DNA from: Candidatus Kaiserbacteria bacterium
Lineage (GTDB): Bacteria > Patescibacteriota > Minisyncoccia > Phycocordibacterales > UBA918
Length of the DNA: 32,879 nt
Assembly (NCBI GenBank): GCA_020428815.1
Contig: JAGQMC010000032.1
Location: 1-32,879, forward strand
Direction of reading: 5' to 3'
Shown here: one piece after another, positions 965 to 4,491 of the stretch
How positions within the stretch are numbered: the first letter of the stretch is position 1
Layout: each line of letters opens with the position of its first letter
The notes under the pieces: generated by a model
Told to the model about the DNA's origin: nothing
Database searches by the model: none
Seen by the model: only the letters and a program-made list of their open reading frames with translations
Program-made: the position numbers and the translations under genes

Positions 965-986
965 CCCGACATTCAAGAATGTCGGG
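965..986 (-). terminator. Intrinsic terminator shared by convergent genes
   Basis: A perfect 10-bp stem CCCGACATTC/GAATGTCGGG encloses an AA spacer (effectively a 4-nt loop). Read on the minus strand it is followed by ATTTTTAT, a good T-tract, so it mainly terminates the minus gene. On the plus strand only GGGTTTC follows, which is weaker. The minus gene's stop codon (973-975) lies inside the stem, so the last codons of that gene double as terminator. Confidence 0.75.
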
Positions 987-1668
987 TTTCAGGATTGCAT
1001 ACTACTGCAAAACGGCTACGTCTCCACCTAGCGTTCAGGTCTTTGATTAAATCGTCTGAAACTTTGTAGCTTGGAGGCATATTATTTAACGGCAGTTTTC
1101 TCATACAGGCCACAGCATCAGAAGGAGTGAATACTTTGTCACCTTCTCGAGTGGCCAGACATGGTTTAGTGAGACTGGTTTTTAAAGGACCGGTTTTAAT
1201 GTGGTTTTTTTTAATTATATTGTAGCCTAAATATAATCTATCCCCTCTTTTCACTTCCATGTAGTAGAAGAAATTTGGTTCAACTGGCAAAATGATTTTC
1301 TGGTTTTGCACGTCAAACGTAACTTCACCTTCTCTGGTTCTGGCTAGAGATATACAGCGCAATGCATGACGTTTGTCATTAAGTATGAAGTACGATACCT
1401 GGATTACTGCAATCTCCAGGCCAGGGGACTTGGTTAATTGAATCAGTTCATGGTACTCGCTCATTTGTTCCGGTTCAGCCGTAGAGTGTGCGACTATAAC
1501 AAAATCTTGCATGTCGTCACCACTAGATTCACCATTTATAATGCAAGAAATGATGTCTTCCTCGAGGGTGTCCCGATGAAATTGTAGTTCATCAATTTTA
1601 TTTTGCATGTCACTCAGTGCGCTGAATTTATTAGCCAAAGTGTCGGAAATAAATAATGTCTCGTCCAT
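973..1668 (-). CDS. Orphan cytoplasmic protein, 231 aa
   Basis: The family is not recognised. The first 50 or so residues are predicted helical and coiled-coil-like (LANKFSALSDMQNKIDELQF...). A mixed alpha/beta region follows, and then a basic C-terminus (ARWRRSRFAVVCN). There is no signal peptide or membrane span. The start is well supported: AGGAGAG lies about 5 bases before ATG on the minus strand, and a TTGACA-16-TATTCT promoter sits upstream. It is the only gene of its transcript and ends in its own terminator. Promoter strength, Shine-Dalgarno and terminator all resemble those of the other orphan units at 5.5, 6.1, 8.5, 12.8 and 13.4 kb. The function is unknown. Confidence 0.72.
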   Translation of the reverse strand: MDETLFISDTLANKFSALSDMQNKIDELQFHRDTLEEDIISCIINGESSGDDMQDFVIVAHSTAEPEQMSEYHELIQLTKSPGLEIAVIQVSYFILNDKRHALRCISLARTREGEVTFDVQNQKIILPVEPNFFYYMEVKRGDRLYLGYNIIKKNHIKTGPLKTSLTKPCLATREGDKVFTPSDAVACMRKLPLNNMPPSYKVSDDLIKDLNARWRRSRFAVVCNPETRHS

Positions 1669-1747: not shown

Positions 1748-1776
1748 TAGACAAAATAGCAAAAAATAAGTATTAT
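1748..1776 (+). promoter_or_regulatory. Promoter of putative structured RNA
   Basis: TAGACA (1748-1753) and TATTAT (1771-1776) are spaced by exactly 17 bases. The predicted start, near 1781-1784, falls at the 5' edge of the strongly structured gene-free stretch. Confidence 0.6.
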
Positions 1777-1777
1777 A

Positions 1778-1985
1778 GCGGGCGTTCGTGGGCTAAAAGC
1801 GTCTAGGAAAATCATCCCTGCGGATGATTTTATAGCTTTTAGAGGCAGAGCGATGTATTTTGCTCCTCTCCTAGAGCAAACTACGATGCGAGCCCGGGGA
1901 GGAAGCACTTAGTAGAATCAGAGCGAAGCGAATGATTATACTTAGTGACTTGACCCAAGGCCCCTTCGGGGCCGCCTGCCTTTCT
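1778..1985 (+). ncRNA. Candidate structured non-coding RNA (no known family recognised)
   Basis: This gene-free stretch of about 200 bases has nested complementarity. An end-closing helix GCGGGCG (1778-1784) pairs with CGCCTGC (1973-1979, one G-U). GGGCT (1790-1794) pairs with AGCCC (1891-1895). CTAAAAGC (1793-1800) pairs with GCTTTTAG and encloses the perfect 10-bp hairpin AAAATCATCC-CTGC-GGATGATTTT. A 15-base arm (1906-1920 with 1933-1947, 13 of 15 paired) closes a GAGCGAAGCGAA loop. GGCCCC-TTC-GGGGCC (1959-1973) is followed by a pyrimidine tail. TCTAGGA (1802-1808) can pair with TCCTAGA (1869-1875), a possible pseudoknot. The helices overlap at a few positions, so not all can form at once. 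It does not match the conserved cores I know for RNase P, tmRNA, 4.5S or 6S RNA. It could be an independent RNA or a long typA leader. Confidence 0.5.
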
Positions 1986-2080
1986 CAACTAAAGCACAAA
2001 AGCCACGAAGAATTATTAATACCCTGCCCAGACGTTCATAAATTCGCTCTTGGACAGGATAAATTTTTATTAAAAAGTTT

Positions 2081-4068: not shown

Positions 4069-4491
4069 ATGCAATATCCATCTGAAGAAGACTTCAGAGG
4101 TTTTGTGAAGGTTATACAAAAAGAAGAGTTTACTATTACAAAATATTTACCAGCAATAAGTGATGACTGGTATATTTCTGTTGCGGAGTGTATTAAATAT
4201 GCTGAAAGTACAAATCCCTATCTCAATTTAGATGTGGTACAAGAAGCCGCACGAATTTTATATAAAATAGTTAAAAAGCATGATTTAGCAGATTCAAATA
4301 AAAGATCTGCCGTTATTGGAGTGTTTCTGTTCCTACTTTTAAATGACCATGCCGTATTAGATCCAGAAAGGCTAAAGTCTGAAGCAAAAAGAATAGCTAA
4401 AACAAAGGGAAGAAAAAATGAAGATTTAATTATAAATAGAGTCACTGAGTCATTGTCTGAATTTGTTGTACATATATCCATTGACGATTAG
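4069..4491 (+). CDS. Fic/Doc-family toxin (death-on-curing type)
   Basis: A 140-residue all-alpha protein. The Fic/Doc signature is HDLADSNKR at residues 71-79, which fits the Doc variant HxxxDxNKR (H71, D75, N77, K78, R79). Phage P1 Doc has lysine where AMPylating Fic proteins have the first glycine of GNGR, and P1 Doc phosphorylates EF-Tu, so a kinase-type toxin is the better guess. The N-terminal part (YPSEEDFRGFVKVIQ...) and the helix before the motif (VVQEAARILYKIVK) match small Doc proteins. It is the second gene of a two-gene operon with a 2-base gap. The base composition is somewhat more AT-rich than typA, which may indicate transfer. Confidence 0.88.
   Translation: MQYPSEEDFRGFVKVIQKEEFTITKYLPAISDDWYISVAECIKYAESTNPYLNLDVVQEAARILYKIVKKHDLADSNKRSAVIGVFLFLLLNDHAVLDPERLKSEAKRIAKTKGRKNEDLIINRVTESLSEFVVHISIDD

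What the first reader, a model, noticed from the sequence alone, without database searches (positions are those of the whole stretch)
1748..1985. Strong candidate for an undescribed structured RNA upstream of typA
A 17-base-spaced promoter leads into about 200 gene-free bases with at least five helices: a 7-bp closing helix joining both ends, a perfect 10-bp hairpin nested in an 8-bp helix, a 15-base arm with a GAGCGAAGCGAA loop, a GC hairpin at the end, and a possible 7-bp pseudoknot. Base-paired ends and a promoter at the 5' edge fit an independent RNA. I do not recognise the conserved cores of RNase P, tmRNA, SRP or 6S RNA.
Basis: partly seen in the sequence, partly recalled or inferred. 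Interest (0 to 1): 0.72.

Follow-up and report, generated by a model that had tools for sequence, protein, structure and literature searches.

The report
Mobile hairpin element carrying target-matching guide
The folded stretch upstream of typA is one of hundreds of copies of a small, protein-free mobile element in Kaiserbacteria that inserts at the 3' ends of tRNA and essential genes and carries a short sequence that base-pairs with each insertion site, which looks like a new kind of base-pair-guided mobile element.

Summary
The structure is real, but it is not a typA leader or a single-copy ncRNA. Window 1793-1956 is one copy of a dispersed element: 358 matches in 35 of 38 genus genomes, 11 in this genome. 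Of 30 typA loci examined, only this one carries it. Rfam has no match. The ~113-nt core covaries very strongly: 27 of 29 pairs show two-sided changes, 0/500 shuffles match.

Copies sit 3' of tRNA genes (58 same strand, 0 opposite) and at the 3' ends of ftsZ, rplB, rplE, rpsI and clpP. The same ftsZ and tRNA-Trp sites are empty in sister genomes. Most copies carry, usually one nucleotide 5' of the core, a guide complementary to their own insertion site; in rplB the guide tracks synonymous codon differences. The 3' flank restarts with the target's own end. One ftsZ element is 93% identical between two species whose ftsZ is 80% identical, indicating horizontal transfer.

Best reading: a non-autonomous mobile element whose guide splints the two flanks during insertion or excision. 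The enzyme, and whether the active form is ssDNA or RNA, are unknown.

The parts
1844..1956 (+). Constant core of the element (model R1): domain P2 (about 1844-1894) and domain P3 (about 1896-1956)
   Evidence: cmsearch 104.3 bits, E 1.9e-23 in this genome; 27 of 29 pairs with two-sided changes on 114 copies
1793..1843 (+). 5' module (P1): helix CTAAAAGC 1793-1800 with GCTTTTAG 1835-1842, then one unpaired A at 1843
   Evidence: sequence; same architecture in the other copies
1808..1831 (+). hp1, perfect 10-bp terminator-like hairpin inside P1
   Evidence: terminator scan; terminator-like hairpin in 62% of 5' modules vs 0.4% in shuffles
1835..1842 (+). Guide position (T'): in other copies this segment is complementary to the host gene end; here only to the element's own 5' strand, the original target being unclear
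   Evidence: guide statistics (other copies); no tRNA or same-strand gene end found 5' of this copy
1905..1945 (+). P3 arm with the GAGCGAAGCGAA loop; conserved stem CTTAGTAGAAT..ATTATACTTAG with fixed U.U and G.A mismatches
   Evidence: columns 108-218 of A2: helices 4-6, 87-99% of cells paired
1778..1784 (+). 5' half of a hairpin in the flanking DNA (GCGGGCG), outside the element
   Evidence: flanks joined fold at -21.2 kcal/mol
1957..1976 (+). 3' flank: GC hairpin GGCCCCTTCGGGGCC and CGCCTGC (1970-1976), the 3' half of the flanking hairpin
   Evidence: flanks joined
1748..1776 (+). Promoter-like TAGACA-17-TATTAT; not above chance

Best explanation
It is one copy of a small (about 165-250 bp), non-coding, non-autonomous mobile element of Kaiserbacteria and relatives. 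Shown by comparison: the element has a constant folded core (P2-P3) and a variable 5' module that, in most copies, holds a guide complementary to the insertion site. The guide covers a few nucleotides of the left flank plus the first nucleotides of the right side. The right flank starts again with the target's last ~3 nt (tRNA ends) or with the displaced native gene end (T-arm, ftsZ, rplB). The element supplies a replacement gene 3' end, usually followed by a terminator-like hairpin, so the host gene can still work. Sites are polymorphic between species and at least one unit moved horizontally. Inferred: the guide acts as a splint that aligns left and right flank side by side, so that a trans-acting recombinase binding the constant core can excise or insert the element at any matching site. 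I think the folded plus strand acting as single-stranded DNA is slightly more likely than RNA.
For: Dispersed copies. Covariation. Empty and filled ftsZ and tRNA-Trp sites. ftsZ element 93% identical over 184 nt against 80% for ftsZ itself, with sharp borders. Exact direct repeats, 25 nt in L038 of this genome. Guide pairs with own tRNA 3' end: mean 7.3 vs 4.7 for other tRNAs, permutation maximum 5.5. Exactly 1 nt between guide and core in 38 of 42; first 3 nt of T2 found in own tRNA end in 33 of 42, permuted mean 18.4, maximum 28. rplB guides follow codon differences in four genomes. Strict orientation, 58 to 0. DNA form favoured by the terminator-like hairpin before the core and lack of promoters and by no RT match in this genome.
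Against: No enzyme identified: Y1 transposase and IS110 are not found in this genome, and the Xer-type integrase is near-universal, including two genomes without copies. New insertion with a guide that matched beforehand was not observed; guide matching could be built up after insertion. Core and guide modules separate in L111. 19 of 110 copies, the window copy among the unclear ones, show weak or no guide-target match.
Confidence: 0.55

Rival explanations
1. RNA-level version: the transcribed element is an intron-like or guide RNA. T' pairs with both flanks like an internal guide sequence, and the RNA splices out, or is inserted, with a protein or by itself.
For: RNA-like internal loops and mismatches conserved in the core; G.T exceeds A.C, 42 to 17, so the sense strand folds; precise removal would restore the native gene.
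Against: Terminator-like hairpin ahead of the core; no promoter signal; RT found in only 9 of 38 genomes and not in this one; no group I intron match in Rfam.
Confidence: 0.25
2. Ordinary small repeat (MITE/REP-like) moved by a conventional transposase or integrase. The guide is only a stabilising hairpin selected after insertion to protect or terminate the host gene's transcript.
For: Gene 3' ends and T-arms are classic integration sites (general knowledge); hp1 is terminator-like; Y1 transposases occur in 23 of 38 genomes and one Xer-type integrase in most.
Against: Very regular 1-nt spacing and target-specific guide reaching into the host gene; the same core with many different targets; no tested transposase follows copy number; no inverted-repeat ends seen.
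Confidence: 0.25
3. Copies spread only by homologous recombination or gene conversion after DNA uptake; there is no dedicated mobility mechanism.
For: Two cores 984 bp apart are 98% identical with different guides; cores do not obviously cluster by target.
Against: Sharp borders at ftsZ without co-conversion of neighbouring codons; exact long duplications in recent copies; empty orthologous sites.
Confidence: 0.1
4. One reading: a discrete structured RNA or leader of typA.
For: Strong fold and position upstream of typA.
Against: Absent from 29 of 30 typA loci; hundreds of copies elsewhere; promoter at chance level.
Confidence: 0.03

Closest known systems
IS200/IS605 elements and REP/RAYT palindromes (single-strand, guide-paired transposition)
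   Same: Folded sub-terminal hairpins; target chosen by a short internal sequence pairing with the cleavage site (IS608, from memory); REPs lie mostly downstream of coding regions (PMC3733652).
   Different: Guide differs from copy to copy with the target; element carries a replacement gene end; ~3-nt or longer duplication; no Y1 match in this genome or in G002, which has 14 copies.
IS110/IS1111 bridge or seek RNAs
   Same: A structured non-coding segment whose loops pair with both sides of the target and can change target (PMC11208160, PMC11187229).
   Different: No IS110 transposase in this genome and only 3 of 38 genomes have one; a single contiguous guide; no donor loop seen.
Group I introns (internal guide sequence)
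   Same: A guide that pairs with both flanks so that removal restores the gene.
   Different: No Rfam group I match; direct duplication of the target end; element-borne replacement gene end; no G.U seen at the junction in the copies read.
Integrase-borne genomic islands at tRNA and gene 3' ends
   Same: Same target sites, replacement 3' end carried by the element, direct repeats of the gene end (general knowledge).
   Different: About 200 bp, no integrase gene of its own, one core used at dozens of unrelated sites, target-complementary guide.
Small palindromic mobile repeats of unknown enzyme (Rickettsia palindromic elements, mitochondrial double-hairpin elements)
   Same: Small, hairpin-rich, protein-free.
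   Different: None known to me carries a target-matched guide or a replacement gene end (from memory; not tested here).

Membership tests
Known RNA family (Rfam 15) | Match at the curated gathering score | tested here: not met
typA leader or cis-regulator | Conserved position upstream of typA | tested here: not met
   1 of 30 typA loci
IS200/IS605 or REP/RAYT | Y1 (HUH) transposase in carrier genomes | tested here: not met
   No match in G000 or in G002 (14 copies); 23 of 38 genomes overall. An enzyme acting in other cells, or too diverged for PF01797, is not excluded
IS110/IS1111 bridge RNA | DEDD recombinase encoded with or near the RNA | tested here: not met
   3 of 38 genomes
Retroelement or group II intron | Reverse transcriptase available | tested here: not met
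   PF00078 in 9 of 38 genomes, none in this genome
Group I intron | Conserved group I core | tested here: not met
   No Rfam match
Group I intron | Self-splicing in vitro | not testable with these tools
   needs biochemistry
Tyrosine-recombinase element at gene 3' ends | Target end duplicated and gene end restored by the element | tested here: met
Tyrosine-recombinase element at gene 3' ends | Own or dedicated integrase | tested here: inconclusive
   Usually a single Xer-type gene per genome, also in two genomes without copies
Mobile genetic element (general) | Polymorphic occupancy of orthologous sites and horizontal transfer | tested here: met
TIGR-Tas | Tandem dual-spacer arrays with box C/D and a Nop-domain protein | not tested
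   Nop domain not searched; no dual-spacer array seen in the copies read (PMC12045711)

The most novel reading that the evidence does not exclude
A new class of base-pair-guided mobile element: a constant folded core plus a short, evolvable guide that splints both sides of the target, letting protein-free ~200-bp elements home to the 3' ends of tRNA and essential genes across a bacterial genus. A single unknown recombinase, or the folded nucleic acid itself, would serve all targets.
Probability: 0.4. Interest if true: 0.95.

Novelty: categorically new. Interest (0 to 1): 0.8.

Why it matters
It would add a compact guide-matched insertion system to the few known programmable ones, in the poorly understood Candidate Phyla Radiation, where the 3' ends of tRNA, ftsZ and ribosomal protein genes are remodelled by a protein-free element. 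The guide-target rule can be tested directly. Even under the plainer readings it is a large, unannotated repeat family that shapes tRNA and essential gene ends in these genomes.

Tried and rejected
Rfam at gathering and permissive thresholds: nothing. typA association: rejected. Promoter: chance level. Viral carriage: three exact-pattern scans of viral contigs found none. An exact-pattern scan of the genome collection gave one other hit, Candidatus Kaiserbacteria. Candidate enzymes RT, Y1, tyrosine integrase, IS110: none follows the element; RAYT-like proteins seen at some PF01797 hits were not pursued. Core tree: no obvious clustering by target or by genome, weakly supported. Literature searches for CPR structured RNAs, palindromic tRNA-end elements and guide-carrying mini-elements found no description (open-licence papers only). 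One search was a failed script, redone.

Full report
What was checked. The stretch folds well beyond chance, and no Rfam family matches it. The promoter is at chance level and the pseudoknot was not tested.

It is a dispersed element. A DNA search found similar DNA in 33 of 59 relatives, often several copies per genome and on both strands. A covariance model of the core (R1, window 1844-1956) finds 11 copies at E below 0.01 in this genome, 358 matches in 35 of 38 genus genomes (sum of its table), and few in the wider phylum (7 of 192 genomes, with stricter filters). The only other exact-pattern hit in the named genome collection is a Candidatus Kaiserbacteria genome. Of 30 typA loci, only this one carries it.

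The fold is under selection. On 114 copies, 86% of cells pair, 27 of 29 pairs have two-sided changes, and covariation is 0.457 versus 0.136 in shuffles, with slid versions at 0.04-0.08. In well-paired columns G.T outnumbers A.C 42 to 17, so the plus strand is the one that folds, as RNA or as single-stranded DNA. That alignment was fitted to the model, but the 16-copy alignment made without it shows the same.

Anatomy. From 5' to 3': left flank L; T1 (the gene's 3' end, element-borne from the junction on); a terminator-like hairpin hp1; often a small second hairpin; the guide T', complementary to the T1 strand and reaching into L; one unpaired nucleotide; the core P2 and P3; then T2, which restarts with the target's own end. 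In 42 tRNA 3'-end copies the spacer between guide and core is exactly 1 nt in 38. The first three T2 nucleotides occur in that tRNA's own end in 33, versus a permuted mean of 18.4 and a maximum of 28 in 5000. In T-arm insertions and at ftsZ, T2 is the displaced native gene end, with direct repeats of 21-36 nt in fresh copies, for example 25 exact nt in this genome's L038. Guides match their own host tRNA better than other tRNAs. At rplB the guide follows codon differences in four genomes (read by eye).

Mobility. ftsZ 3' ends carry the element in about half of 30 genomes and are empty in 13 (read by eye, with model hits). tRNA-Trp shows the same pattern, with other structured families at some of the sites. 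Between this genome and G002 the ftsZ element is 93% identical over 184 nt although ftsZ is 80% identical; the recoded T1 is shared, while the flanking codons and T2 differ. This points to transfer as a unit with sharp borders. Targets include tRNAs of at least 24 anticodons, ftsZ, clpP, rplB, rplE and rpsI. Orientation relative to neighbouring tRNA is 58 to 0. Two neighbouring copies share 98% of the core but have unrelated guides and targets, so core and guide modules can separate, by transposition or by gene conversion.

The window copy is a member with a generic P1 helix and no recognisable host gene end. Its flanks form a hairpin when joined, as do those of L002, L005, L006 and, more weakly, L124.

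Mechanism. The guide reads as the reverse complement of left flank plus right flank, so it can hold both flanks in one helix beside the right boundary at the end of P3. That is the geometry of a splint for joining or opening the target (inference). What performs the chemistry is unknown: RT, Y1 and IS110 proteins were not found in this genome, and usually a single Xer-type integrase is present. Terminator-like hairpins ahead of the core (62% vs 0.4%), absence of a promoter signal and absence of RT lean towards a DNA form; the conserved internal loops lean towards RNA. I hold the mobile, guide-matched element to be well supported (about 0.8) and the splint mechanism to be likely but unproven (about 0.55).

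Limits. Occupancy at ftsZ and tRNA-Trp was read by eye. Copies analysed are mainly the best-scoring ones. Permutation controls do not remove relatedness. Selection for a stable hairpin after insertion could create part of the guide matching. Literature coverage is limited to open-licence papers. Several statements about known families (IS608, group I introns, palindromic repeats) rest on general knowledge.

Noticed in passing
L083, L106, L108, L111, L118, L130, L203, L230 (ftsZ and tRNA-Trp sites): Other families of folded elements sit at the same sites with the same T1-T'-core-T2 plan, for example one ending in a hairpin NNNNCTGTAAGNNNN just before T2 and one with GGACTC..GAGTGGAC. They have no model yet.
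   Followed up: partly
L111 (G010 contig 42), two copies 984 bp apart: Cores 98% identical but guides, 5' modules and targets entirely different: core and guide are separable modules.
   Followed up: partly
38 genus genomes: Xer-type integrases fall into two score classes; genomes with the lower-scoring class tend to have more element copies, but phylogeny was not controlled and G007 (such an integrase, no copies) does not fit.
   Followed up: no
L002, L005, L006, window 1766-1990: Copies without a host gene end lie inside what is a hairpin when the flanks are joined: terminators or other palindromes may be a second target type.
   Followed up: partly
window 4069-4491 (+): A 140-aa protein with a weak, sub-threshold Fic/DOC match, directly after a short ORF; possibly a toxin-antitoxin-like pair.
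   Followed up: no
window 973-1668 (-): A 231-aa ORF divergent from typA without any Pfam or NCBIfam match.
   Followed up: no
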